Part shown: piece by piece, positions 49,496-64,000 of the stretch
How the letters are laid out: every line of letters begins with the position of its first letter
How positions within the stretch are numbered: position 1 is the stretch's first letter
Assembly (NCBI RefSeq): GCF_000243255.1
Contig: NZ_CM001436.1
Location: forward strand, 904,077-968,076
Length of the DNA: 64,000 nucleotides
Direction: 5' to 3'
From: Methanoplanus limicola DSM 2279
GTDB taxonomy: Archaea > Halobacteriota > Methanomicrobia > Methanomicrobiales > Methanomicrobiaceae
Program-made: the position numbers and the translations under genes
The notes under the pieces: generated by a model
Database searches by the model: none
What the model was told of the DNA's origin: nothing
Seen by the model: the letters and a program-made list of their open reading frames with translations, nothing else

Positions 49496-52237
49496 ATGAA
49501 TATCTATGCCCTCTCTCCTGACGAACAACTCGCTGCAATGGAGTCATCAGCTGACGGCCTGAGCGATGCTGAAGTCATAAAACGTCAGAAAAAATACGGG
49601 TATAATGCAATAGAGAAACGGCGGGGCAAAAACTACGTCAGAGAATACCTTGTCCAGTATGTCCAGTTCTTTGCAATACTCCTGGAAGTTGCAGCAGTTC
49701 TCTCCCTTATTGCCAACCGGTATGCCCCCGGAGAGGGATATGATATTTTAGGGTTTGCCATATTCGGGGCGGTGGTTGTCAATGCAACCTTCGCCTTCTG
49801 GCAGGAATACAGGGCAGACAAAACAGTAGAAGCCCTCAGAAAACTGATACCGTCATCGATCACGGTCAGGCGAAACGGAGAGAACCAGAAGATTAAGGCA
49901 GTATCACTTGTTCCGGGCGACATCCTGATACTGGAGGAAGGCGACAGGATCGGCGCCGATGCGGTTGTCATCAGTGAAAATTCACTCTATGTAAATAATG
50001 CAACCCTAAACGGGGAATCACGCCCGGCACGAAGAAATACAGAACCAACTGAAGCTGAATCACCCCTTGATGCAAAAAATGCCGTTTTTGCCGGAACAAC
50101 AGTCACAAGCGGAAATGCCATTGCATTGGTGACCACAACCGGAGAGAATACAGAATTTGGAAAGATCGCCTCCCTTGCAGGCAATGTCCGGAAGAGACTG
50201 ACCCCGATGCAGAAGGAGATCATCCGGATTACAAGAATTCTCACCTATGCAGCTCTCTTTATGGGGGCAGTTTTTCTGGTTCTCGGATATCTCTCAGGAA
50301 AAGGTCTCCTTATGGCTGCCATATTTGCCCTGGCCCTTGTTGTGGCAAATGTGCCGGAAGGAATGCTTCCGACAATAACCCTCTCCCTCTCACTTGCAAG
50401 CCAGAATATGGCAAAGAGAAACGCCCTCATAAAAAATCTTGACTCTGCACAGACGCTTGGGAGCGCTACAGTCATCTGCACGGACAAGACCGGCACACTG
50501 ACCAGAAATGAGATGACGGTCAGGGAGATCTACCTTACCGGCGGAGAGGAGATAACTGTCACCGGTGAAGGCTATTCCCAGGAGGGAGACTTTGAATACT
50601 CAGGCGGAAACGATACATCAGAAGAACGGCTGGAGCAATTCCTGAATGCCGGCCGGCTGAACTGCCGTGCCCGTTTTTCCGGAGAGGAGAACTTCGGAGA
50701 TCCGACTGAACTCGCAATTGTTGCTGCGGCGAACAAAAAAATGCCGGCCACTGATGACTATGAAAAGACCGGCGAATTCCCCTTCACCAGTGACCGGAAG
50801 ATGATGTCGTCCGTATATGTGCATGAAGGGAGAAATTACCTCTTTTCCAAAGGGGCCTTTGAGATTCTTCTGCCACTCTCCACTCATTACATGAACAGTG
50901 AGGGCAGAGCTGTTCCATATGATGAAGCTTCAAAGAGGGAATTTTTAGAGAAAGCCGAAAGTTTTGAGAAGAGGGCATACCGTGTCCTGGCAGTTGCATT
51001 CAGGGAGGGTGAGAAGGAAGAAAAGCTTACCATGCTCGGACTTGTCGCCATAATGGATCTTCCAAGGGAAGAGGTTTATGAGGCGATAAAGAAATGCAGA
51101 AGAGCCGGTATCAGGGTTATGATGCTTACCGGAGACAACCCGAACACAGCAAGGGCCATCGCAGAGAAGATAGGTATGCATGTGGACATCACGCTCACAG
51201 GTGATGAACTCAGACGGATGCCGGATGATGAACTCCGGGAAACACTGACATCGCACTGCGTCCTCTGTGCCAGGATGCGATCAGAGCAGAAGCTAAGAAT
51301 TGCAACCCTCCTTCAGACGAACGGGGAGGTGGTTGCAATGACCGGAGACGGCGTCAATGACGCACCTGCCCTTAGAAAAGCTGATATCGGAATATCAATG
51401 GGAATTAAGGGTACTGAAGTAGCAAGGGAGGCATCAGATATGATCCTGCTGGATGACAACTTCGCCTCCATAGTTGCAGCTATTGAAGAGGGAAGGACGG
51501 TTTACTTCAACATCAAGAAATTTGTGACCTACATATTATCGTCAAACATTCCGGAGATCGTTCCCTATATTCTCCAGTTCTTCCTGAGAATTCCCCTGCC
51601 GCTATCTGTTATCCAGATCCTCACCATTGATCTCGGATCAGATATGCTCCCCGGACTTGCGCTTGGCAGTGAAAAACCGGAGGACGACATCATGAACAGG
51701 CCTCCGGTTGGCAAAGATGAACGGATACTTGATGCCGAAGTCTTCAAACGGGGATATTTCTTCCTCGGAGCGATAGAAGGGACTGCCGCAATGGTGGCAT
51801 TTCTCGGATTTCTCTTCCTTTCCGGGTGGCAGTACGGAGATCTCTCCATCACAAACAGTACGCTGCATTATCAGGCGATGACCATGACACTGCTTGGAGC
51901 AATCACCTGCCAGCTTATGAATGTCTGGACGCTTAGATCATGGGAGAATTCAGCATTCAGCAGGGGGCTTTTCACCAATAAACTGCTGATTGTTGCTATA
52001 ATCATTGAGATCATCTGGATTGTCATGATCCTCACGGTTCCGCCGGTACAGTACATCTTCAACACGGCATACGTCCCGCTGCCATTCCTGATACTGCTCA
52101 TACCCTTCCCGATTCTGCTCTTTGTCCTGCATGAGCTCTATAAATGGAGGATACGGACAAAAAGAGAAAAAAATACCCCTAAAAAGCCGGGAGAAGATGA
52201 AGCAGGATGCGGGGAGGATATTCCAAATGTCTGCTGA
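49496..52237 (+). CDS. P-type cation ATPase resembling Na+,K+-ATPase (type IIC-like)
   Basis: 913 residues in ten helices. Phosphorylated Asp330 lies in CTDKTGTLTRNEMTV; the actuator loop reads NATLNGES (Asn where TGES is usual); the hinge is MTGDGVNDAPALRKADIGISMG (in two parts, TGDGVND). Ion-site residues follow the animal Na+,K+-ATPase: VPEGM with Glu288 in M4, SNIPEIVP with Asn684/Glu687 in M5, IDLGSDMLP with Asp712/Asp716 in M6. By alignment of the M8 region, Asn809 stands where the third Na+ site has Asp. No beta subunit gene is adjacent. It probably pumps Na+ or K+; direction and stoichiometry are unknown. Own promoter. Confidence 0.9.
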   Translation: MNIYALSPDEQLAAMESSADGLSDAEVIKRQKKYGYNAIEKRRGKNYVREYLVQYVQFFAILLEVAAVLSLIANRYAPGEGYDILGFAIFGAVVVNATFAFWQEYRADKTVEALRKLIPSSITVRRNGENQKIKAVSLVPGDILILEEGDRIGADAVVISENSLYVNNATLNGESRPARRNTEPTEAESPLDAKNAVFAGTTVTSGNAIALVTTTGENTEFGKIASLAGNVRKRLTPMQKEIIRITRILTYAALFMGAVFLVLGYLSGKGLLMAAIFALALVVANVPEGMLPTITLSLSLASQNMAKRNALIKNLDSAQTLGSATVICTDKTGTLTRNEMTVREIYLTGGEEITVTGEGYSQEGDFEYSGGNDTSEERLEQFLNAGRLNCRARFSGEENFGDPTELAIVAAANKKMPATDDYEKTGEFPFTSDRKMMSSVYVHEGRNYLFSKGAFEILLPLSTHYMNSEGRAVPYDEASKREFLEKAESFEKRAYRVLAVAFREGEKEEKLTMLGLVAIMDLPREEVYEAIKKCRRAGIRVMMLTGDNPNTARAIAEKIGMHVDITLTGDELRRMPDDELRETLTSHCVLCARMRSEQKLRIATLLQTNGEVVAMTGDGVNDAPALRKADIGISMGIKGTEVAREASDMILLDDNFASIVAAIEEGRTVYFNIKKFVTYILSSNIPEIVPYILQFFLRIPLPLSVIQILTIDLGSDMLPGLALGSEKPEDDIMNRPPVGKDERILDAEVFKRGYFFLGAIEGTAAMVAFLGFLFLSGWQYGDLSITNSTLHYQAMTMTLLGAITCQLMNVWTLRSWENSAFSRGLFTNKLLIVAIIIEIIWIVMILTVPPVQYIFNTAYVPLPFLILLIPFPILLFVLHELYKWRIRTKREKNTPKKPGEDEAGCGEDIPNVC

Positions 52238-52573: not shown

Positions 52574-55500
52574 TCAATCATTCTTTCTCTTTTCCCAGAT
52601 GTACACTCCAATAACTGCAATAATTATGCATATAATCAAAATTATAAGCCAGGCAGACGATGAAACCGGTTCTTTAGTTGCTGCACCGCCTGTTCCTGAG
52701 GCTGTAGTCGGCTCGACTGCTGCTCCGGTTTCTTCCTCTGCAAACAGTGCGTATGTACTGAAGTGTGTAACCTGAATGGTGATCGTCCGATCATCGGTGT
52801 TTTTCTGTCCCTTAAGAATCTCCCATTCTCCGGTATCTTCATTAAACCAGCCGACTTCAACACTCTGGCCATACATGCTCCACTCCTCTTCAGAGAGGAT
52901 GAAAGTAAGGGTTGCTGCGGGTGTAAAAGTAGTTCCGTCCGGAAGGAGTTCATATGCATAGAGCATCACGGGATCTTCAAGACCGGAAATTACTGTTACA
53001 GAAGGTGCAGCCTCTTCAGGTATTGCAGACATGCCGATCTCGCTCTGAACATTGCCGTCCGAACTGCGGACAGAGAAACCTGCATCCACACTGAGATATG
53101 CCGACATATTGCCTGCCCATATATTAACGGGCTCTTCAGTCAGACCCTCATCTCCGAAGGCCAGAACTCCAAGGTTTATGAAATTTTCAGGAACTGTATA
53201 AGGTCTTTCAGTAGGAGTTGTTGTGGGTATGGGAGTAGACACAGCAGTTGAAACCGGCCAGATCTCATTATCATCACCGCTGGAACTATCTCCGCCACCG
53301 GAACCCCCACCGCCGGAACTTGTGGCTGCTATATAATTTGCTTTTGTCTTAGCTGCATCACCATACCTGTTTGTCGCAGTCAGCGAGACAGAATATGTTC
53401 CGGCCGTACTGTACGTATGCACAGGGTTCTGAACGGTCGATGTCGATCCGTCACCGAATGACCAGTTCCACGCAGTCGGAGCAGGACTGCCGGAGCATTT
53501 ACTTGTGAATGATACCGGGAGAGGAACATTTCCGCTCGTAACATTGGCTGCGAAATCGGCAGTCATCGGGTTTGAAACCGTGATATAATCGTTTTTGACT
53601 ATTGTATCTAAGCCTTTGGAGTTGTTGACCGTAAGAGTGACATCATAGATCCCTGTCGATGCATATATGTGTGCGGGGTTCTTCAAAGTCGATGTCACAC
53701 CGTCGCCGAATGACCAGTTCCATGTAACCGGACTGTTTATTGACAGGTCAGTGAACTGAACGGTAAGCGGAACCTTTCCTGCAACAGGATTCGCAGAGAA
53801 CTCCGCAACCGGCGCAGCCAGCGGTGAGAAGCTCACCAGCACCTTGGAGGAGAAACCATCCGGTGAAAATCCGACGAAGGTATAGATCCCGCCTTCCAGA
53901 CTGTATGTTGTATCAAGGACAATGACAGTGCCGTCCTCCGATAAACTAAGCATTCTGAAGTAATCAGGGCCGCCGCAGAGATCGGTGACATACGCCTCGG
54001 AGGCTGTCATTGTTATATACGCATTGCTGACGTTTATTCCGCCGAACGAGGATTTATCAATCCTCATCGTGTAAGTGACCTCTCCAAGTTCGCCATCAAG
54101 CTGGTTCAATACTGCAAGCTGGAATGCACGCCCCTGGCTTTCATTCACAGCTCCACGTGTTATGGTGATATTGAGCTGAGTTGACGGACTGGTCAGGCCG
54201 GAAAGGCTGCCGGAGATATTGGCACTGATACCCGTACTGACCGAACCCACATCACCCTGAAGATCGACGGAGTTCGAGATGTTGCCGATGCTGGCACCTG
54301 TGGCAGTACCGTTCCATGTGTTGGAACTGTTCACCAGACCGGTGGTCCTGATAGAGATAACTATTCCCGGATTAGTAACGACAATTGTTGTGTTGTCGGC
54401 AGATACTGTGGCATTGTGATTATCTGCAACATTTATACTGACCTCGTTTGTAGTGTCATTATAGGTCATGTTTTCAACGATTAGAGACTGATCCCTGTTA
54501 AGGGCCGCCTCTACGGGGGTTATGTTGACTGAGCCGTCATCCATCATTTCAAATGGATATGTTCTGTTGTCTCTTGTCCAGAAGGCATTTACAAATTCTA
54601 TGTCATCATACCCGGGTATCCCCCTGGAGTAGACTTCAAGATCGATGAGTGATTCAATTCCGGTAAGGTCGTCATTTGAGACTGCTTCTATCCGGAGCCA
54701 GCCGTTTTCATTCCTGATAGTCTTGCTGACTATGGTTAAGCCCGGTACTGAGCTGTTGACAGTGGCATCTGCGACAAACATTATAGATTTGTTGAATTCA
54801 AGGACAAATGAGACATTTCTGACTTCATATAGATCCGAAGCGGCTATTGTAAAAGTACCTTCGGACTCTACAGGCAGTACTCCGTCAGGTGCAGCGATTT
54901 CGGTAACCTTCTCGACATGGATTTCACCGTCATGCAGTACCATACTGCATTTCCCGGTCAGAGAATCTGCGTCGGCCGATGTGAAGTTCAGGGCTGAAGT
55001 ATTCCTGGGATTGAAGACATTGTCGACAGCTCTGAAATTAACCTCGGCAATTTCCACACTTCCGGAGTACGAAAGACCGTTGGTATCGGAGATATTTATT
55101 GTAAGCAGACCGTTAAGGTTGTCTATATCGCTGCTGAAGACCGAACCGCTTATAAACGCCGAAGCACTCGCATTTTCAACTGTAACCGTTGTTGGGTCGT
55201 ATGATAATGCGAAATCTATAGCAGTTACACCGACAAGGTCAGAGGCCCTGACGGGTAATTCTGCAACTTTGCCTTCGGCGATCCTGCCGTCGGGTGCAGT
55301 CAGCGTAACAGTTGCAGGGACAGGCTTCATCTCAAATGAAACCTCAGTCACATTACCAAGTGTGACGGTGACATCTGCCGTTACATTAAGGTAGCCCGAC
55401 TTGGTTAGCATGAGTTCATATTCACCGGGGATTAAGCTCAAACTGTCGTTTGTAAGTTTATGAGTGTTTACACCGTCAAGCCAGATAGAAGCTCCCACAG

Positions 55501-58500
55501 GAGTGGAATTAACCTGAAGCGTGCCCGCATTTCTTACAAGAGTAAAGTCGGCCAGAGTGGTATTGTCAGGCGTGACATCAACAACCTTACTGGAATTTTC
55601 ATAACCGGACAAAGTAACATTAACTGTATAGCTTCCAACGGATTGATCAGCGAATGTCCAATTTGTAGTTTTACCAGTATCAATACCATTGAGTGAAATC
55701 GAAGCTCCGGAAGGAGTGGAATTAACCTGAAGCGTGCCCGCATTTCTTACAAGAGTAAAGTCAGCCAGAGTGGTATTGTCAGGCGTGACATCAACAACCT
55801 GACTTGAATTTTCATAACCGGACAAAGTAACATTAACTGTATAGCTTCCAACGGATTGATCAGCGAATGTCCAATTTGTAGTTTTACCAGTATCAATACC
55901 ATTGAGTGAAATCGAAGCTCCAACAGGAGTGGAGTTGACCTGAAGCGTGCCCGCATTTCTTACAAGAGTAAAGTCGGCCAGAGTGGTATTGTCAGGCGTG
56001 ACATCAACAACCTTACTGGAATTTACATAACCGGACAAAGTAACATTAACTGTATAGCTTCCAACGGATTGATCAGCGAATGTCCAATTTGTAGTTTTAC
56101 CAGTATCAATACCATTGAGTGAAATCGAAGCTCCGGAAGGAGTTGAATTGACCTGGAGAGTGCCGGCTTTTCTTACAAGAGTAAAGTCAGCCAGAGTGGT
56201 ATTGTCAACGGTTACATCAACAACCTTACTGGAATTCTCATAACCGGACAAAGTCAGGTTCACAGTATGACTGCCAACGGAGAGGTCAGTGAACGTGCTG
56301 TTGGTTACATTACCCGTATCGACACCGTCAAGCCAGATTGAGGCTCCAGAAGGAGTAGAATTGACCTGAAGCGTGCCCGCATTTCTTACAAGCGTAAAGT
56401 CAGCCAGAGTAGTATTGTCAAGCGTGACATCAACAACCTGACTTGAATTCTCGTAACCGGACAAGGTAAGGTTCACAGTGTGCAGACCTACGGAGAGGTC
56501 AGTGAACGTGCTGTTGGTTACATTACCCGTATCAACACCGTCAAGCCAGATTGAGGCTCCAGAAGGAGTAGAATTGACCTGAAGCGTGCCCGCATTTCTT
56601 ACAAGCGTAAAGTCGGCCAGAGTGGTATTGTCAACGGTTACATCAACAACCTTACTGGAATTCTCATAACCGGACAAAGTCAGGTTCACAGTATAACTGC
56701 CAACGGAGAGGTCAGGGAATGTGCTGTTCGTTACATTACCGGTATCAACACCGTCAAGCCAGATTGAGGCTCCAACAGGAGTGGAGTTGACCTGAAGCGT
56801 GCCCGCATTTCTTACAAGAGTAAAGTCGGCCAGAGTTGTATTGTCAAAGGTTACATCAACAACCTTACTGGAATTCTCGTAACCGGACAAAGTCAGGTTA
56901 ACAATATGACTGCCAACGGAGAGGTCAGAGAATGTGCTGTTCGTTACATTACCGGTATCAACACCGTCAAGCCAGATTGAGGCTCCAACAGGAGTGGAGT
57001 TGACCTGAAGCGTGCCCGCATTTCTTACAAGAGTAAAGTCGGCCAGAGTTGTATTGTCAAAGGTTACATCAACAACCTTACTGGAATTTTCATAACCGGA
57101 CAAAGTAACATTAACTGTATAGCTTCCAACGGATTGATCAGCGAATGTCCAATTTGTAGTTTTACCAGTATCAATACCATTGAGTGAAATCGAAGCTCCC
57201 GAAGGAGTTGAATTAACCTGGAGAGTGCCGGCTTTTCTTACAAGCGTAAAGTCAGCCAGAGTTGTATTGTCAACGGTTACATCAACAACCTGACTTGAAT
57301 TTTCATAACCGGACAAAGTCAGGTTAACAGTATGACTGCCAACGGAGAGATCAGTGAACGTGCTGTTCGTTACATTACCCGTATTGACACCGTCAAGCCA
57401 GATTGAGGCTCCAACAGGAGTGGAGTTGACCTGAAGCGTGCCCGCATTTCTTACAAGAGTAAAGTCAGCCAGAGTGGTATTGTCAACGGTTACATCAACA
57501 ACCTTACTGGAATTCTCATAACCGGACAAAGTCAGGTTAACAGTATGACTGCCAACGGAGAGGTCAGGGAATGTGCTGTTCGTTACATTACCGGTATCAA
57601 CACCGTCAAGCCAGATTGAGGCTCCAGAAGGAGTAGAATTGACCTGAAGCGTGCCCGCATTTCTTACAAGAGTAAAGTCAGCCAGAGTGGTATTGTCAAC
57701 GGTTACATCAACAACCTGACTTGAATTTTCATAACCGGACAAAGTCAGGTTAACAATATGACTGCCAACAGGAAGATCTACGAAGGTGCTGTTGGTTACA
57801 TTACCCGTATCAACACCGTCAAGCCAGATAGAAGCTCCCACAGGAGTGGAGTTGACCTGAAGAGTACCCGCATTTCTTGAAAGCAGGAAGTCGACGGCAG
57901 TAATATTGTTCTGGGTTACTTTCACCTCCTCCTGGCTTGAGCTTTCATATCCGGAGAGTGTGACAGTAACATTGTAGCTACCGACCTGAAGCTTATCCAG
58001 GGTCTTATTGGTTAGATAACCTGAATCCACCCCGTTCAGGTAAATTTTTGCTCCACCCGGAGTGGAATTCACACTAAGGATACCATACTCAACAACATCT
58101 CCCTGGAAGACCGGATAACTGTTTTTGGCTTCAAATACTCTCCAGATCTTTGAGGTATCCGCACTGACGCTGATTATATCCGGCGACCATTTTAGACCGT
58201 TGTCGGGAGTTGTTCCGGTAAGGAAGCCATAGTCCATAAATTTGGTCAGATTGGAGATCAGGGTTCCTTCTGTATTAGCACCACTGTTATAGTTACGATA
58301 GCAATTCGTAATCACGCTGCCGCTGCCGGTACTACCGACAAGACCACCGTAAGTGGTGGAAGAGGCATTACCAACTGCAAAACTGTTTGTAATCGAACAT
58401 AAATTCTGTCCCACAAGACCACCGGCAAAATTACCGCCCTCGGCAGTGGCGTCTCCGGTGGAATAACAGTTATTTATAGAACCACCAGGGTTCTCCAGCC

Positions 58501-61500
58501 CTGCAAAACCGCCGGCAAAACCGCCCTCTGCAGTGGAATCTCCGGTGGAATAACAGTTATTTATCGAACCGCCGGTATCCTGGCCCAAAAGACCACCGGC
58601 AAAACCACCGCTCCCTGCAATGGCGTCTCCGGTGGAATAACAGTTATTTATCGAACCATCGGTATCCCCTCCCATTAGACCACCGGCAGAACCACCGGCA
58701 CCGGCAGTGGCACTTCCAGTGGAATAACTGTTATTTATCGGACTGTTGGTACTCTGGCCCACAAGGCCGCCGGCAAAACCACCGTTCCCTGCAATGGCAT
58801 CTCCAGTGGAATAACAGTTAATTATCGGAGCACCGGCATCCTGTCCCAAGAGACCGCCAGCAAAATTACCGTCAGCAGTGACAGTCCCGGAAGAGGAGCT
58901 GTTAATTATCGAACCGAAGGCATCCTGTATCCCCACAAGACCGCCGGCAAAATTACCGTCCGCAGTGACGTTTCCGGAAGAGGAGCAGTTAATAATATAG
59001 CCCATGTTATGTCCGGCGAGGATACCAACGTAAGTACTTCCATGGACCCCTCCGGCACCTGCCGCCACATTCAGGTTATTTATACTACTATTAATGCCCA
59101 GGACGCCGAAGAGACCGACATTATCGGAACCGGCCAGATTCAGCGTGAGGTTGCTTATGGTATAGCCCTGACCGCTGAAATTTCCGGTGAATAAATGTGT
59201 AATGTTTCCGATCGGGTTAACCAGAGTATCGTCAAAAATGGAGATGTTATTAATGACAGTGAAATTCTTACCCCAATCATCCGGACTTCCGGATAATTCG
59301 TTAATATCGGAACTTGTGCTTATCTGGTATGGATCATCTGCAGTTCCGCTTCCGCCGCTGTATTTGGGGAGTCCGACAGTAAGGATAAATGTTGTTTCAG
59401 ACTTTTCAATTTCTCCCAGGCCCCCTACTACAATTCCTGTGGCCGTGATGGTAATTGGAATCTCAGTTCCCCTCTCACAACTCTCCGATACCTGAAGAAC
59501 AACACTATAGTTTTTTGATACCCCAGGACCAATATCCTCGGCAGGTCCGGTATAAACCCATTGGATTGTTCCATTAGCTGTAATATTTGTGTAAGGGTTT
59601 ACGTATTCACAACTCAGATCCTTATAATTTAATGCGTAATTTATCATGAGGCCAGGTCCAAGCTCCTGACCTGATGAATTCGGATACAGATTCTCTAAAG
59701 TCATATTGATTGTAACATTCCTGCCGGGAAAAACTCTCAGGGATGATATGTCGGTTGTCAAACCGATATGCGGGAGATTAAGTTCCACTGTAGTTATATT
59801 GGACTCTTTTACCAAATGCCCGTCTCCGGTTCCCTGTGCAAGAAGCGTGTTTACCGCTACATTGCCACCTGTAGACACTACACTGGCAGAGACATTGAAT
59901 GTCCTGATTCCCCCTGTTTCAAGATCCCCTACATCCCAGATAAGACAGTTGCCGCTTACCGAAGCAGCAGGATCGGATGATTTATAATCAAAATCTCTGA
60001 GGCAGTAGGTTACATTGACACCGGAAAGTGGAACAGTACCTGTGTTTGTGAGATCTATCGTGAAGTTGACAGTCTCTCCTATTTCGGAAAGATTGTTCCT
60101 GTCAGACGAAGAACTAACGGAGAGTCCTGCAGCAATGGGGTCACGGGCAACCGCATACCACTGGGCCGGAACGGTAAGACCTCCGGAAATAAGACCTGAG
60201 CCTGTAGCTGTGTCTCCGACCTTCCACCAGTTTATATCCAGGCTGACATCATGCGGATTCCAGGCTACATACGTCCTGCGGCCCGAAGAATCTACGAATG
60301 CCGCAGTAAACGGCTGGGAATAACTACCTGCTTCAGCCGCAGCGGAATAGCCGAATACAGATGGATCCGGTGTGCCGTATTTATCGATCGCCCAGAACCA
60401 TGTCAGGGCCTCGGACGTAGTCTGCGAGTCTCCCACATAGTCGTCTTTGAGAGTATTGAACCAGTTAAGATTGTATTCTATCGGGCCGCTTTCATTCCTG
60501 GATTCCTCAATGGCGTTCATGAACCAGTTGTAAGGAGAGTATGAAATTTCCGAGTCCTTAATCGCTGTAGCGACTCCTCCAATAGCACGCTGTTCGTTAA
60601 CAGTCGCCCTCCTGGCGCCGGAAGCATTATCCACAGAATAATCATAACCACCATTATTGTTGTAGTCCATGGCCCTGCACCACAGGTTGGTATATTCAAG
60701 ATCTCTCGCAAAATTGAGCGTGTATCCTCCCATCGGGAACCAGAAGTTGTACATGTCGGAAACAGGTGATAGTCCGAACTCCGATCCGTACTGTGCCTGG
60801 GCCATAAACAGTTTTGTAACCTGAGAGGTGGCATTCGGGTAGCCCTCGGGAACGGAAGGCCAGTCAATATACGGATTACCCCAGTTAACAGCGGTGTCCC
60901 ACATCGTATCCCCGACATTATAATCTACGGGGCGGGTGGAGTTACCGGTGACCTGCGGGAGATAGTCACCGTTTATCGACCATTTGGCTGCTGTTTTAGT
61001 ACCGACGGTACTGGCGTCAGGGACAAAAGAACCTGTTGTATCGGCCCAGTAGGATTCCTTGTTGTAAAGGTTCGTTGTATAGAGATAGATTCCAAGATCT
61101 GTGATGTCCTGGCGGTTTGTAGCCGTACCCCACATGATGATCCCGGACCATGCCTGCATAGTTTCTCCCAGAGAATTGTCATCTTTCCCTTCCGACAATG
61201 GGGCATTATTGCTGTTCAGTGGGAAACCCTCTGTCCATGACTGTCCGTTCCACTGGTCAAAGAAGTTCATCTTTGAATACTTCATGTCAGCATTTGTATA
61301 GAACTGACCGCAGTCCGCGTCGTATGCTATCGACATGACCAGCTGGTCGATGAATGCTCCGTACTCATCCTCGCCCGCCCAATCCTGATCGAAGAAGGCT
61401 GTCATTGCGGCTGAAGTAATAAAATACCCGTAAAGATATTGATCGTCATTCCAGTTGATGGCGTTTCCGAAACCGTCCATAGGCGTATCAGATGGCGATT

Positions 61501-63598
61501 CGGCCTTATAGGTCGTCGGGAAGTTGTTAATTTGCCCCTCTTTATAGGGGCCCTGGGCCGGGTACATAAACACGGCGCCGGCAGTTTCATTATATAAGAA
61601 GAAATATGGAGAATACTGATCTTTTTCTCCAGAAGTGTCTTTACTTGTCCGGAAAGGTGTTTCCCGGGTAAACATCTCGAAGAAATTCTCAATACCTTCT
61701 ATATTATGAGTAAAGGACTGGTTTGCGTAATACGTCCGATGGGTTGTATTTGTCTGGTTATACCACTCTGTTCCTTCCCACCATGCAGGCATCCCATAAG
61801 GTTCCAGATCCGAAACGCTTTGCCCCAAGACTGCCGATTCGTCCTCTGCCAGCGTGCTTAACTGCTTTTCCACGGCCAGTTTACCGGCCATATAGCGTAA
61901 AATCAATCCATAATTATAATTTGCATTGGATTCGCCGCCGTCAAGTTCCGTTCCATATGGAGGATAGTCCCCGGTATTCTTGTTCGTATAACTGTCCTCG
62001 TCACAGTTGATTATATTCCAGAGTAACTGATCGCCGTTGGAGGCGTATTCATCAACTAACGGCATGAAAGGAATAAAGTTGTTGAATACATAGGTCGTCG
62101 AGAAACCGTCCGCTGCAATTGGAAGGAGTTTGCCTTTGGCTGACCAGTACTGATAATGGCCGTTATTCACAGAAGGCATCTTGTCCACCCAATTTCCGGG
62201 CGATGACGGTCTGAGGGTTAAGGAATCCAAATCGCCGTCGAAAACATCTTCATCCCTTCCGTCAGCAAAGCTTTCATACTGATGCCTCTGGAGGCACAGA
62301 ACCGTCTCATCTCCTACACCGGAACCCGTGGGTCCCATCTTTTCAGTAGTAGGTTGATAGGTCGTATGCAACAGGCCTTCGTCATGATCGACCGTATAAG
62401 AGATCTCTGTATCTGTGATATAGTTGAAGGCATAAGGGGCAATTACCTTCGCCCAGTCCTCTGACTCGGAGAGTGCCTCTTCCTTTGTGGGAGTAAATTC
62501 ATCCCGGTTGACTATTCCCTTAGGATATGAAACAACCGGAAGTCCGGCAATAACGAAGTGGCATTTCTCGCAGCCGGCTGTTTTCGGAATAAGGGATATC
62601 CCCTGGGTATCATTGACAAAATCCATTTCACTTTTATTATAGAATACGGCAAAATAGTTCCAGTTCGTAACTGTGGATGTAGGTGTCGTATCCTGGGAGA
62701 GTATATCCTGGTTTGTTCCGACAAGTACACACCCGAGATCTGGAATACCTGTATCAACCACGCTTATATTGACATATGCACGGCCTGACATTTCAGTTCC
62801 ATGAAGTGCAGCGTTAAAAGGGGCACCTGTGTAGAACTTGCATGCCATCATCTCCCCGCTTCCCGGATTATTCCAGGTGAACCATGAAAATGGCGATCCC
62901 TGTGCCATCGTAAATTCCAGGTTATCACTGCTGCTTTTATTCTGAAGCAGGAAATCGATATCCCAGTCGCCCATCCGTGTTGCAATGAGATTGTCGGGGA
63001 AATCATTGCCCCATGAAGGATCTGTCGCTCCTACATTATCTGCCGGGAATACCCTCAGACCTGAGTACCACCAGCCGTTCTGTACTACATGGTATGACGA
63101 GTTCTCAACTGGAAAAGTAGTATTTTTTCCCACGCCCGCTACCGGAATCGACATGGAGAATACAGGACCTGTAACCCTCCCGTCATTATTTTTATTTGAA
63201 AATTCACTTGCAGTGAAGGTCAGACTTAGCGGATCAGCATAGATGTTATCCTGAATAAATGAATTCTCCCATGGTGCAAATACCCCGGACTTTGGTTCCT
63301 GCATATAATAGGTAAGAGTGCTGTTCGGCCAGATCATAAAACCGGCCCATGAATGGAGCCTCTCCACAAGGCTTCCGTTCCGCATGCTGTCTCCTACAGA
63401 CGATTCATCCATAAAGAGCGGTGTCGGGTCCATCTGCCAGGTAACCGGACCGTCAACACCCTGCCATCTCCCTCCGCTGTCGGGAAGTTCGGTCTGTATA
63501 TACGCCTTTCCAATTTGAATCGGTTCTGCCGCCGCATTCGCAGTGCAGAGTAAAATCATTAAAATACCCAAAATCAAGAAGAGTTTACCCGGTTTCAT
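52574..63598 (-). CDS. Giant multidomain surface protein: GH81-like, GLUG, 13 PEGA, cohesin-like, PKD, membrane anchor
   Basis: 3,674 residues from ATG 63598, where a signal peptide (KLFLILGILMILLCTANAAA) begins; upstream in-frame codons to 63679 are unlikely to be used. Going inward: GH81-like glucanase domain (about 63520-60120); a DUF11/CARDB-like region (about 60120-59390); a GLUG repeat domain (about 59170-58255); 13 PEGA repeats (58096-55320); two cohesin-like domains (about 55325-54925 and 54920-54505); a beta-rich region; two PKD domains (about 53820-53325; WNWSFGDG in each); a Gly/Ser and Thr/Pro linker; a C-terminal domain; and a membrane helix (AWLIILIICIIIAVIGVYIW) with basic end. 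The frame is open throughout. It should be anchored by its C-terminus with the catalytic-like domain farthest out. Many NxS/T sites suggest heavy glycosylation. Polysaccharide binding or cleavage, or cell adhesion, is the inferred role. Confidence 0.9.
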   Translation of the reverse strand: MKPGKLFLILGILMILLCTANAAAEPIQIGKAYIQTELPDSGGRWQGVDGPVTWQMDPTPLFMDESSVGDSMRNGSLVERLHSWAGFMIWPNSTLTYYMQEPKSGVFAPWENSFIQDNIYADPLSLTFTASEFSNKNNDGRVTGPVFSMSIPVAGVGKNTTFPVENSSYHVVQNGWWYSGLRVFPADNVGATDPSWGNDFPDNLIATRMGDWDIDFLLQNKSSSDNLEFTMAQGSPFSWFTWNNPGSGEMMACKFYTGAPFNAALHGTEMSGRAYVNISVVDTGIPDLGCVLVGTNQDILSQDTTPTSTVTNWNYFAVFYNKSEMDFVNDTQGISLIPKTAGCEKCHFVIAGLPVVSYPKGIVNRDEFTPTKEEALSESEDWAKVIAPYAFNYITDTEISYTVDHDEGLLHTTYQPTTEKMGPTGSGVGDETVLCLQRHQYESFADGRDEDVFDGDLDSLTLRPSSPGNWVDKMPSVNNGHYQYWSAKGKLLPIAADGFSTTYVFNNFIPFMPLVDEYASNGDQLLWNIINCDEDSYTNKNTGDYPPYGTELDGGESNANYNYGLILRYMAGKLAVEKQLSTLAEDESAVLGQSVSDLEPYGMPAWWEGTEWYNQTNTTHRTYYANQSFTHNIEGIENFFEMFTRETPFRTSKDTSGEKDQYSPYFFLYNETAGAVFMYPAQGPYKEGQINNFPTTYKAESPSDTPMDGFGNAINWNDDQYLYGYFITSAAMTAFFDQDWAGEDEYGAFIDQLVMSIAYDADCGQFYTNADMKYSKMNFFDQWNGQSWTEGFPLNSNNAPLSEGKDDNSLGETMQAWSGIIMWGTATNRQDITDLGIYLYTTNLYNKESYWADTTGSFVPDASTVGTKTAAKWSINGDYLPQVTGNSTRPVDYNVGDTMWDTAVNWGNPYIDWPSVPEGYPNATSQVTKLFMAQAQYGSEFGLSPVSDMYNFWFPMGGYTLNFARDLEYTNLWCRAMDYNNNGGYDYSVDNASGARRATVNEQRAIGGVATAIKDSEISYSPYNWFMNAIEESRNESGPIEYNLNWFNTLKDDYVGDSQTTSEALTWFWAIDKYGTPDPSVFGYSAAAEAGSYSQPFTAAFVDSSGRRTYVAWNPHDVSLDINWWKVGDTATGSGLISGGLTVPAQWYAVARDPIAAGLSVSSSSDRNNLSEIGETVNFTIDLTNTGTVPLSGVNVTYCLRDFDYKSSDPAASVSGNCLIWDVGDLETGGIRTFNVSASVVSTGGNVAVNTLLAQGTGDGHLVKESNITTVELNLPHIGLTTDISSLRVFPGRNVTINMTLENLYPNSSGQELGPGLMINYALNYKDLSCEYVNPYTNITANGTIQWVYTGPAEDIGPGVSKNYSVVLQVSESCERGTEIPITITATGIVVGGLGEIEKSETTFILTVGLPKYSGGSGTADDPYQISTSSDINELSGSPDDWGKNFTVINNISIFDDTLVNPIGNITHLFTGNFSGQGYTISNLTLNLAGSDNVGLFGVLGINSSINNLNVAAGAGGVHGSTYVGILAGHNMGYIINCSSSGNVTADGNFAGGLVGIQDAFGSIINSSSSGTVTADGNFAGGLLGQDAGAPIINCYSTGDAIAGNGGFAGGLVGQSTNSPINNSYSTGSATAGAGGSAGGLMGGDTDGSINNCYSTGDAIAGSGGFAGGLLGQDTGGSINNCYSTGDSTAEGGFAGGFAGLENPGGSINNCYSTGDATAEGGNFAGGLVGQNLCSITNSFAVGNASSTTYGGLVGSTGSGSVITNCYRNYNSGANTEGTLISNLTKFMDYGFLTGTTPDNGLKWSPDIISVSADTSKIWRVFEAKNSYPVFQGDVVEYGILSVNSTPGGAKIYLNGVDSGYLTNKTLDKLQVGSYNVTVTLSGYESSSQEEVKVTQNNITAVDFLLSRNAGTLQVNSTPVGASIWLDGVDTGNVTNSTFVDLPVGSHIVNLTLSGYENSSQVVDVTVDNTTLADFTLVRNAGTLQVNSTPSGASIWLDGVDTGNVTNSTFPDLSVGSHTVNLTLSGYENSSKVVDVTVDNTTLADFTLVRNAGTLQVNSTPVGASIWLDGVNTGNVTNSTFTDLSVGSHTVNLTLSGYENSSQVVDVTVDNTTLADFTLVRKAGTLQVNSTPSGASISLNGIDTGKTTNWTFADQSVGSYTVNVTLSGYENSSKVVDVTFDNTTLADFTLVRNAGTLQVNSTPVGASIWLDGVDTGNVTNSTFSDLSVGSHIVNLTLSGYENSSKVVDVTFDNTTLADFTLVRNAGTLQVNSTPVGASIWLDGVDTGNVTNSTFPDLSVGSYTVNLTLSGYENSSKVVDVTVDNTTLADFTLVRNAGTLQVNSTPSGASIWLDGVDTGNVTNSTFTDLSVGLHTVNLTLSGYENSSQVVDVTLDNTTLADFTLVRNAGTLQVNSTPSGASIWLDGVDTGNVTNSTFTDLSVGSHTVNLTLSGYENSSKVVDVTVDNTTLADFTLVRKAGTLQVNSTPSGASISLNGIDTGKTTNWTFADQSVGSYTVNVTLSGYVNSSKVVDVTPDNTTLADFTLVRNAGTLQVNSTPVGASISLNGIDTGKTTNWTFADQSVGSYTVNVTLSGYENSSQVVDVTPDNTTLADFTLVRNAGTLQVNSTPSGASISLNGIDTGKTTNWTFADQSVGSYTVNVTLSGYENSSKVVDVTPDNTTLADFTLVRNAGTLQVNSTPVGASIWLDGVNTHKLTNDSLSLIPGEYELMLTKSGYLNVTADVTVTLGNVTEVSFEMKPVPATVTLTAPDGRIAEGKVAELPVRASDLVGVTAIDFALSYDPTTVTVENASASAFISGSVFSSDIDNLNGLLTINISDTNGLSYSGSVEIAEVNFRAVDNVFNPRNTSALNFTSADADSLTGKCSMVLHDGEIHVEKVTEIAAPDGVLPVESEGTFTIAASDLYEVRNVSFVLEFNKSIMFVADATVNSSVPGLTIVSKTIRNENGWLRIEAVSNDDLTGIESLIDLEVYSRGIPGYDDIEFVNAFWTRDNRTYPFEMMDDGSVNITPVEAALNRDQSLIVENMTYNDTTNEVSINVADNHNATVSADNTTIVVTNPGIVISIRTTGLVNSSNTWNGTATGASIGNISNSVDLQGDVGSVSTGISANISGSLSGLTSPSTQLNITITRGAVNESQGRAFQLAVLNQLDGELGEVTYTMRIDKSSFGGINVSNAYITMTASEAYVTDLCGGPDYFRMLSLSEDGTVIVLDTTYSLEGGIYTFVGFSPDGFSSKVLVSFSPLAAPVAEFSANPVAGKVPLTVQFTDLSINSPVTWNWSFGDGVTSTLKNPAHIYASTGIYDVTLTVNNSKGLDTIVKNDYITVSNPMTADFAANVTSGNVPLPVSFTSKCSGSPAPTAWNWSFGDGSTSTVQNPVHTYSTAGTYSVSLTATNRYGDAAKTKANYIAATSSGGGGSGGGDSSSGDDNEIWPVSTAVSTPIPTTTPTERPYTVPENFINLGVLAFGDEGLTEEPVNIWAGNMSAYLSVDAGFSVRSSDGNVQSEIGMSAIPEEAAPSVTVISGLEDPVMLYAYELLPDGTTFTPAATLTFILSEEEWSMYGQSVEVGWFNEDTGEWEILKGQKNTDDRTITIQVTHFSTYALFAEEETGAAVEPTTASGTGGAATKEPVSSSAWLIILIICIIIAVIGVYIWEKRKND
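53325..53820 (-). other. Two PKD domains of the giant protein
   Basis: Each about 80 residues with the PKD signature WNWSFGDG, then NPAHIY or NPVHTY and the strand YDVTLTVNN or YSVSLTATN. PKD domains are immunoglobulin-like spacers or adhesion modules common on archaeal surfaces. They lie just outside the membrane anchor, followed by a GGGGSGGG-type linker. Confidence 0.9.
54505..55325 (-). other. Two cohesin-like domains of the giant protein
   Basis: Both repeats begin with an APDG segment (TLTAPDGRIAEGKVAELPV; IAAPDGVLPVESEGTFTIA) and contain the cohesin-type strand pattern AIDFALSYDPTTVTVENASA or NVSFVLEFNKSIMFVADATV, then GLLTINISD-like strands. Cohesins bind dockerins; archaeal examples exist (Archaeoglobus). 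No dockerin motif was recognised in the window, so the partner is unknown. Assignment by pattern. Confidence 0.65.
55320..58096 (-). repeat. Thirteen tandem PEGA repeats, 213-bp period
   Basis: Units of 71 residues beginning AGTLQVNSTPxGASI and ending TTLADFTLVRN. The first (from about 58096) and last (ending about 55320) are diverged; units 2-12 are nearly identical. Two subtypes alternate: IWLDGVDTGNVTNSTF (units 2-4, 6-9) and ISLNGIDTGKTTNWTF (units 5, 10-12). The word CCTGAAGCGTG recurs 213 bp apart (for example 55513, 55726). PEGA domains are beta-sandwich modules of surface proteins. Confidence 0.96.
58255..59170 (-). repeat. GLUG repeat domain of the giant protein
   Basis: About ten imperfect repeats of 25-35 residues with FAGGLVGQ (the GLUG motif) and INNCYSTGDA. 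Repeats of this kind form a right-handed beta solenoid in bacterial adhesins and IgA-peptidase-like proteins. Period near 90-100 bp at the DNA level, with moderate identity. Confidence 0.85.
60120..63520 (-). other. GH81-like (endo-beta-1,3-glucanase) domain of the giant protein
   Basis: About 1,130 residues. Two segments match GH81 landmarks: FGNAINWNDDQYLYGYFITS (family FGNxYYNDHHFHYGYxI) and FDQWNGQSWTEGF with EGKDDNSLGETMQAWSGII (family WxGHSWAxG, GKxxESSSEAxNAxYG). The Asp of the first and the final Glu of the second, expected general acid and base, are kept; the His pair and first Glu are changed. The full-length fold is recognisable from LPIAADGFSTTYVFNNFIPF onward. Activity on beta-1,3-glucan is possible but not proven. 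Confidence 0.72.
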
Positions 63599-64000
63599 AA
63601 TATCTACCCCATTCCCACCCCCACCAGGGAACATGAAATGAACTTCCACCTTAAAATATTTAATAATTATCGCACACAATTATAGCAAATATTTATGATT
63701 TTTTGTATCAGTATCCGGCATATGAAGTAATATATGAAGTAATTAATGAAACAAGAACAGTATCCGGAACAATGAAAGTATGCCAGCTGACAGATAATGA
63801 ATGACAGAGTGCACTGTTTCATAGGAGATTCTAAATCATCAGTGCCTCATATCTCATAATAATTAAGACTCTTTGAGGGATCTGTTTTTGTTATATTCTC
63901 TTACATAAGAACACGGTGAACAACTCTGTTTACTGTTCTGATTTCCTTAATCTTACAAACTTTCTCATTAGACAGTGACAAGGATGAACTCTCAAAACCA
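63599..64000. other. Upstream region of the giant gene to the end of the window
   Basis: About 400 bp, AT-rich. Contains the second copy of the palindromic motif (63792-63829) and probably the promoter of the giant gene. No credible gene was found up to position 64000; a gene beginning beyond the edge cannot be judged. Confidence 0.4.
63792..63829 (+). repeat. Copy 2 of the 38-bp motif found upstream of the CheY-CheC-kinase operon
   Basis: Matches 35245-35282 at about 33 of 38 positions, including TGTTTCATAGGAGAT exactly. The left half of the palindrome is degraded here (ATGACAGA instead of ATGAAACA). It lies about 195 bp upstream of the giant gene start. Confidence 0.5.

What the first reader, a model, noticed from the sequence alone, without database searches (positions are those of the whole stretch)
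49496..52237. Archaeal P-type ATPase with the ion-site residues of animal Na+,K+-ATPase
M4 VPEG, M5 SNIPEIVP and M6 IDLGSDMLP match Na+,K+-ATPase positions that bind K+/Na+, while the M8 position of the third Na+ site appears to be Asn and the actuator loop reads NGES instead of TGES. It could pump Na+ or K+ with a different stoichiometry, relevant to a methanogen depending on sodium gradients.
Basis: partly seen in the sequence, partly recalled or inferred. Interest (0 to 1): 0.6.

Follow-up and report, generated by a model that had tools for sequence, protein, structure and literature searches.

The report
Archaeal sodium–potassium pump with rewired site
This methanogen gene encodes a single-protein relative of the animal sodium-potassium pump; in it and nearly all microbial relatives the acid of the third sodium site is missing from its animal position and one usually sits on the neighbouring helix, so whether 3-for-2 pumping is ancient is testable.

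Summary
Trees place it in P2C, the Na+,K+/H+,K+-ATPase group (100/100), apart from Ca2+ pumps, as a deep sublineage found in methanogens, Campylobacterota and Desulfobacterota. P2C pumps of methanogens are already published (Palmgren 2023) but uncharacterised, so the protein belongs to a known group. What I add: (1) D926 is Asn in 79 of 80 prokaryotic P2C and W924 is never Trp (0 of 81), contrary to the statement that all three Na+ sites are conserved. (2) 68 of 81, including this one (E761), carry Glu at TM7 position 854 where animals have Gln: the site-III acid looks moved from TM8 to TM7. E854 and D926 never co-occur, but only two informative independent contrasts exist, so this is not statistically secured. 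(3) Neighbours and fusions of relatives (cation-chloride cotransporter, TrkA, Usp, PTS EIIA) point to K+/osmotic homeostasis. NGES is a common variant. Most likely function: beta-less Na+ export and K+ import; stoichiometry (3:2 with rewired site III, or electroneutral 2:2) unresolved.

The parts
49496..52237 (+). P2C-type (Na+,K+/H+,K+-ATPase group) P-type ATPase gene, 913 aa
   Evidence: ORF and translation; Pfam; NCBIfam; trees; Foldseek
50009..50020 (+). actuator-domain loop NGES (TGES in most relatives), residues 172-175
50342..50362 (+). M4 VANVPEG (residues 283-289; N324 and E327 of pig numbering)
50483..50497 (+). phosphorylation motif DKTGT (D330)
51530..51565 (+). M5 YILSSNIPEIVP (residues 679-690): Y771, S775, N776, P778, E779 equivalents kept; Ser at T774
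51626..51646 (+). M6 IDLGSDM (residues 711-717): D804 and D808 kept, Ser at T807
51776..51778 (+). M7 Glu761 at the animal Gln854 position (candidate relocated site-III acid)
51911..51922 (+). M8 QLMN (residues 806-809): Q923 kept, W924 to Leu, D926 to Asn
52007..52009 (+). M9 Glu838 at E954 (kept)

Best explanation
The gene encodes a single-subunit (no beta) P2C pump that uses the Post-Albers cycle to export Na+ and import K+, serving K+/osmotic homeostasis. Sites I and II are essentially those of animal Na+,K+-ATPase. The third, Na+-only site is built differently: TM8 Asp926 is Asn and Trp924 is Leu, while TM7 position 854 carries Glu (E761) instead of Gln, so if a third Na+ is bound its charge is balanced from TM7 rather than TM8. 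Shown here: family placement, residues, distribution, neighbourhood of relatives. Inferred: the ions moved, direction, and the role of E761. I cannot choose between 3Na+:2K+ with a rewired site III and electroneutral 2Na+:2K+.
For: P2C placement with 100/100 support; the clade also holds (100) in a tree made blind to the 19 site columns. E327, Y771, S775, N776, P778, E779, D804, D808, Q923 and E954 are kept, whereas the Ca2+-pump branches carry N at 804, E at 923 and no E954. S775 is Ser, not the Lys of H+,K+-ATPases (PMC9463140). PMC9463140: the ngHKA Lys794Ser mutant exchanges 2Na+ or 2H+ for 2K+ electroneutrally; Gln873 in TM7 (the Q854 position, by my alignment) is called a site-III-coordinating residue; Asp923Asn in alpha3 lowers Na+ affinity more than 100-fold without changing K+ affinity. 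E854 and D926 never occur together. Neighbours in relatives: cation-chloride cotransporter gene next to the pump in 3 genomes, TrkA-like genes directly downstream in all 5 loci of a sister P2C clade, Usp gene directly upstream in 9 bacterial loci, PTS EIIA_2 domain fused to Desulfobacterota P2C. Foldseek ranks Na,K/H,K pumps first.
Against: I found no transport or ATPase data for any prokaryotic P2C; PMC10654040 says uncharacterised. The protein scores below NCBIfam's cut-off for the Na,H/K-ATPase subfamily (535 vs 946 bits), and its best raw NCBIfam score is to the PMR1-type Ca2+ model (581, cut-off 798). By TM-score the AlphaFold model is closer to E2 SERCA (0.86) than to Na,K-ATPase (0.77), probably a conformation effect. 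The E854/D926 exclusivity rests on two informative contrasts (sign test p = 0.5). In the window itself the neighbours (flavodoxin, VTT protein) say nothing about K+.
Confidence: 0.68

Rival explanations
1. Same P2C pump, but site III is simply absent and the pump is electroneutral, 2Na+ (or 2H+) out for 2K+ in, as in the Lys794Ser non-gastric H+,K+-ATPase mutant; E761 has another role such as helix packing. (A version of the best explanation that differs in stoichiometry only.)
For: Both features that PMC9463140 found necessary for site III, an available Asp926 and Trp924, are missing in the window protein and in almost all prokaryotic P2C. One P2C sublineage (F324 clade, e.g. L072-L076, L219, L220) has neither acid.
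Against: E761 and its conservation (68 of 81), E954 conserved, and position 854 being Gln in animals and in L215, where D926 is present.
Confidence: 0.4
2. H+/K+ or unselective monovalent exchanger rather than a Na+-selective pump.
For: Loss of Trp924 and of a free Asp926 is linked to loss of strict Na+ selectivity in the ngHKA mutant series (PMC9463140).
Against: No Lys at position 775 and P778 present, both Na+-pump-like.
Confidence: 0.15
3. In the methanogen it runs mainly in reverse: the Na+ gradient made by the methyltransferase Mtr drives Na+ entry and ATP synthesis, as speculated for archaeal P2C in PMC10654040.
For: Methanogens make a primary Na+ gradient; published speculation.
Against: Orthologues occur in non-methanogenic Campylobacterota and Desulfobacterota; neighbours and fusions of relatives point to K+/stress control; the gene is absent from the congener G001.
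Confidence: 0.07
4. It is a Ca2+ pump of type P2A/SPCA/LMCA1.
For: Highest raw NCBIfam bit score is to the PMR1-type Ca2+ model; LMCA1 and SPCA1 rank close behind Na,K/H,K pumps in the PDB sequence search.
Against: The P2C clade is separated from archaeal P2A and SERCA with 100/100 support; the Ca2+-pump N and E at positions 804 and 923 are D and Q here.
Confidence: 0.06

Closest known systems
Archaeal P2C ATPases of methanogens (Palmgren 2023, discussed in PMC10654040 section 7)
   Same: Methanogen host, P2C branch, sites I and II conserved, no known beta partner, uncharacterised. A 41-44% identical clade common in one family (f8, probably Methanosarcinaceae), with the same E854/N926 pair, is probably this set.
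   Different: The window protein belongs to a separate deep P2C sublineage (100/100). The review states that all residues of the three Na+ sites are conserved; here D926 and W924 are not.
Animal Na+,K+-ATPase alpha (PDB 7e1z, 3wgu, 2zxe)
   Same: Same clade and sites I/II; E954 and Q923 kept.
   Different: D926 to Asn, W924 to Leu, Q854 to Glu; no SYGQ beta-assembly motif, much shorter extracellular M7-M8 loop, no KETYY C-terminus.
Non-gastric H+,K+-ATPase and its K794S / SPWC mutants (PMC9463140)
   Same: Aliphatic residue instead of Trp924, hence a similarly incomplete site III.
   Different: No Lys at 775; Asn instead of Asp at 926, Glu at 854.
SERCA / PMR1 / LMCA1 Ca2+ pumps (P2A)
   Same: Overall fold; Asn at the 926 position.
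   Different: D804, Q923, E954, P778 instead of the Ca2+-pump residues; separate clade.

Membership tests
P2C ATPases (broad clade: Na,K / H,K pumps and prokaryotic relatives) | Groups with animal Na,K/H,K-ATPase to the exclusion of Ca2+ pumps | tested here: met
   100/100; clade support 100 with the site columns removed
P2C ATPases (broad clade: Na,K / H,K pumps and prokaryotic relatives) | Site I/II residues E327, S775, N776, E779, D804, D808 | tested here: met
   all identical; T807 is Ser
P2C ATPases (broad clade: Na,K / H,K pumps and prokaryotic relatives) | P-type catalytic motifs DKTGT and TGE | tested here: met
   DKTGTLTRNEM; loop reads NGES, catalytic Glu kept
Na+,K+-ATPase proper (3Na+:2K+, alpha-beta) | Site III: D926 and W924 | tested here: not met
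   N809 and L807
Na+,K+-ATPase proper (3Na+:2K+, alpha-beta) | Beta-subunit assembly motif SYGQ and C-terminal KETYY | tested here: not met
   both absent; PMC9609216 reports the beta motif absent from all its group-I (prokaryotic) sequences
Na+,K+-ATPase proper (3Na+:2K+, alpha-beta) | Score above NCBIfam TIGR01106 curated cut-off | tested here: not met
   535.4 vs 946.1 bits
Na+,K+-ATPase proper (3Na+:2K+, alpha-beta) | Na+-dependent phosphorylation, K+-stimulated dephosphorylation, 3:2 charge movement | not testable with these tools
   needs biochemistry
P2A Ca2+ pumps | Ca2+-pump Asn at 804 and Glu at 923 (SERCA N796, E908) and place in the P2A part of the tree | tested here: not met
   D and Q at these positions; outside the P2A rows
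H+,K+-ATPases | Lys at position 775 (Lys794 in ngHKA) | tested here: not met
   Ser683
P2D (ENA) fungal-type Na+ pumps | NCBIfam TIGR01523 cut-off | tested here: not met
   367 vs 645 bits; no ENA sequence was available for the tree

The most novel reading that the evidence does not exclude
The site-III charge of P2C pumps has two alternative addresses, Glu on TM7 (most prokaryotes, perhaps ancestral) or Asp on TM8 (animals and the Desulfobacterota protein L215), so a three-Na+ pump predates animals but with a differently built third site; a third sublineage with neither acid would be a natural 2-Na+ pump.
Probability: 0.35. Interest if true: 0.7.

Novelty: new variant of a known kind. Interest (0 to 1): 0.5.

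Why it matters
How and when the 3Na+:2K+ stoichiometry that underlies animal membrane excitability arose is open. The published view holds that methanogen pumps already have all three Na+ sites. The counts here say that the animal site-III residues D926 and W924 are almost never present in prokaryotes, but that a Glu on the neighbouring helix usually is. This turns the question into a small mutational test (E761Q, N809D, both) and offers a natural series of pumps with the acid on TM7, on TM8, or on neither.

Tried and rejected
(1) I first took the 657-674 aa P-type ATPase near the pump in L034/L035/L044 for KdpB; its sequence has the CPH metal motif, and the one genome of these tested (G007, L035) has no KdpA, so it is a P1B pump and is dropped as K+ evidence. 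(2) NGES as a functional novelty: rejected, it alternates with TGES/TGEA/SGES/DGES in close relatives. (3) Ca2+ pump: rejected by tree and residues. (4) Statistical proof of E854/D926 coevolution: the sign test cannot reach significance. (5) Plasmid collection: only matches under 60% identity (listed rows 37-40%), no close homologue. (6) Cation-chloride cotransporter in the window's own genome: not found (no positive control). (9) Palmgren's primary paper was not held, so whether it mentions these residues could not be checked.

Full report
Observation. Pfam finds the N-terminal, E1-E2, hydrolase, cation-ATPase and C-terminal domains above cut-off. NCBIfam scores are highest for the PMR1-type Ca2+ model (581 bits) and the IIC Na,H/K model (535), both below their curated cut-offs, so family models alone do not decide. 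A whole-genome search finds only two E1-E2 ATPase genes in this 3.2-Mb genome: this one and an 823-aa one that is otherwise dissimilar.

Relatives. Orthologues at about 60-81% identity occur patchily in Methanomicrobiales, Methanotrichaceae, Campylobacterota and Desulfobacterota. The next tier (about 41-47%) includes a clade common in one family of the phylum (f8), probably Methanosarcinaceae and probably the archaeal P2C pumps described by Palmgren (PMC10654040). The gene is absent from the congener G001, where the flavodoxin and VTT genes lie in the same order but different genes follow. Its nearest relative is a Methanospirillaceae protein (80%), not a member of its own family (68-71%), which suggests horizontal transfer, though loss is not excluded. 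It is under purifying selection (dN 0.143, dS 1.88).

Phylogeny. A careful IQ-TREE analysis of 43 proteins puts the window protein with animal Na,K- and H,K-ATPase and other prokaryotic pumps in one clade (100/100), separate from SERCA and archaeal P2A pumps. The window lineage (100/100) branches beside all other P2C including the animal pumps (91/87 for that rest). A second tree with the ion-site columns removed recovers the same P2C clade with support 100. The animal sequences fall among prokaryotic ones. Only two animal P2C references (human-like Na,K alpha1 checked against PDB; H,K residues taken from the alignment) and SERCA1a were used; no other eukaryotic P2C was available.

Ion sites (pig numbering). 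In the 84 prokaryotic P2C of that tree, E327 is kept in all, and S775, N776, E779, D804, D808, Q923 and E954 in nearly all. This matches a Na+/K+ pump and not a Ca2+ pump. At site III, D926 is Asn in 79 of 80 and Asp in one (L215, Desulfobacterota); W924 is never Trp (0 of 81). The TM7 residue Q854 is Glu in 68 of 81, Gln in 9, Ser in 2, Asn in 2. The 854/926 pairs seen are E/N (67), Q/N (8), S/N (2), N/N (2) and Q/D (1, plus the animals); E/D is never seen. The M7 alignment around this residue is free of gaps in most rows. In the window protein the residues are E761, Q806, L807, N809 and E838. [quoted passage not shown] Two predictions follow: a rewired three-Na+ pump with the acid on TM7, or an electroneutral two-Na+ pump. 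The data do not choose. Tree-aware testing found 5 changes at 854 and 2 at 926, with opposite direction in both informative contrasts, which cannot reach significance.

Context. In the window the neighbours are a flavodoxin and a VTT-domain protein, not informative. In relatives: a prokaryotic cation-chloride cotransporter gene is adjacent in three genomes (L033/L171, L162, L167); a Usp-like gene is directly upstream in nine bacterial loci; a Na+/H+ exchanger gene lies close by in L034/L177 and L159. In a sister P2C clade (L192-L196) TrkA-like genes follow the pump in all five loci, in tandem pairs in three; in L197/L198 a Usp gene precedes it. Several Desulfobacterota P2C pumps carry an N-terminal PTS EIIA_2 domain. 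These are K+, salt and stress modules and support a K+/osmotic role. The window genome has one TrkH and no KdpA.

Structure. An AlphaFold model from a 38-sequence alignment has mean pLDDT 80.9. Foldseek's best hits by E-value are Na,K- and H,K-ATPase chains; by TM-score an E2 SERCA chain fits better, which I read as a conformation effect.

Verdict. The new element is the consistent change of site III and the distribution of its acid between TM7 and TM8, which I did not find noted in the papers held. Palmgren's primary paper was not held, so it may mention these residues.

Noticed in passing
L126-L135 (Campylobacterota): P2-ATPases of about 1330 aa (40% identical, P2A part of the tree) begin with a roughly 430-aa Na+/H+ exchanger domain (PF00999 in the one tested, L127): an antiporter fused to a P-type pump.
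   Followed up: partly
L208-L211, L213, L214, L217, L218 (Desulfobacterota): P2C pumps with an N-terminal extension of about 150 aa; three tested match PTS EIIA_2 (PF00359), a domain known (from general knowledge of E. coli PtsN) to regulate K+ transport.
   Followed up: partly
L205, L207, L216, L222: P2C clade members whose M5 ligands are changed (S775 to His, in some N776 to Leu or Ala), so ion specificity probably differs despite their place in the tree.
   Followed up: no
window 52574-63679 (-): Predicted 3701-aa secreted surface protein with about a dozen near-identical repeats of roughly 70 aa (NAGTLQVNSTP...LADFTLVR) and a C-terminal hydrophobic anchor.
   Followed up: no
L034:3587-5557, L035:5369-7390, L044:7596-9584: A P1B-like (CPH motif) metal ATPase gene lies within about 4.5 kb upstream of the P2C pump in three Methanomicrobiales loci.
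   Followed up: partly
L045 / G421:C87: The Methanothrix harundinacea MAG copy of the pump is split into two open frames (823 and 341 aa): frameshift or assembly error.
   Followed up: no
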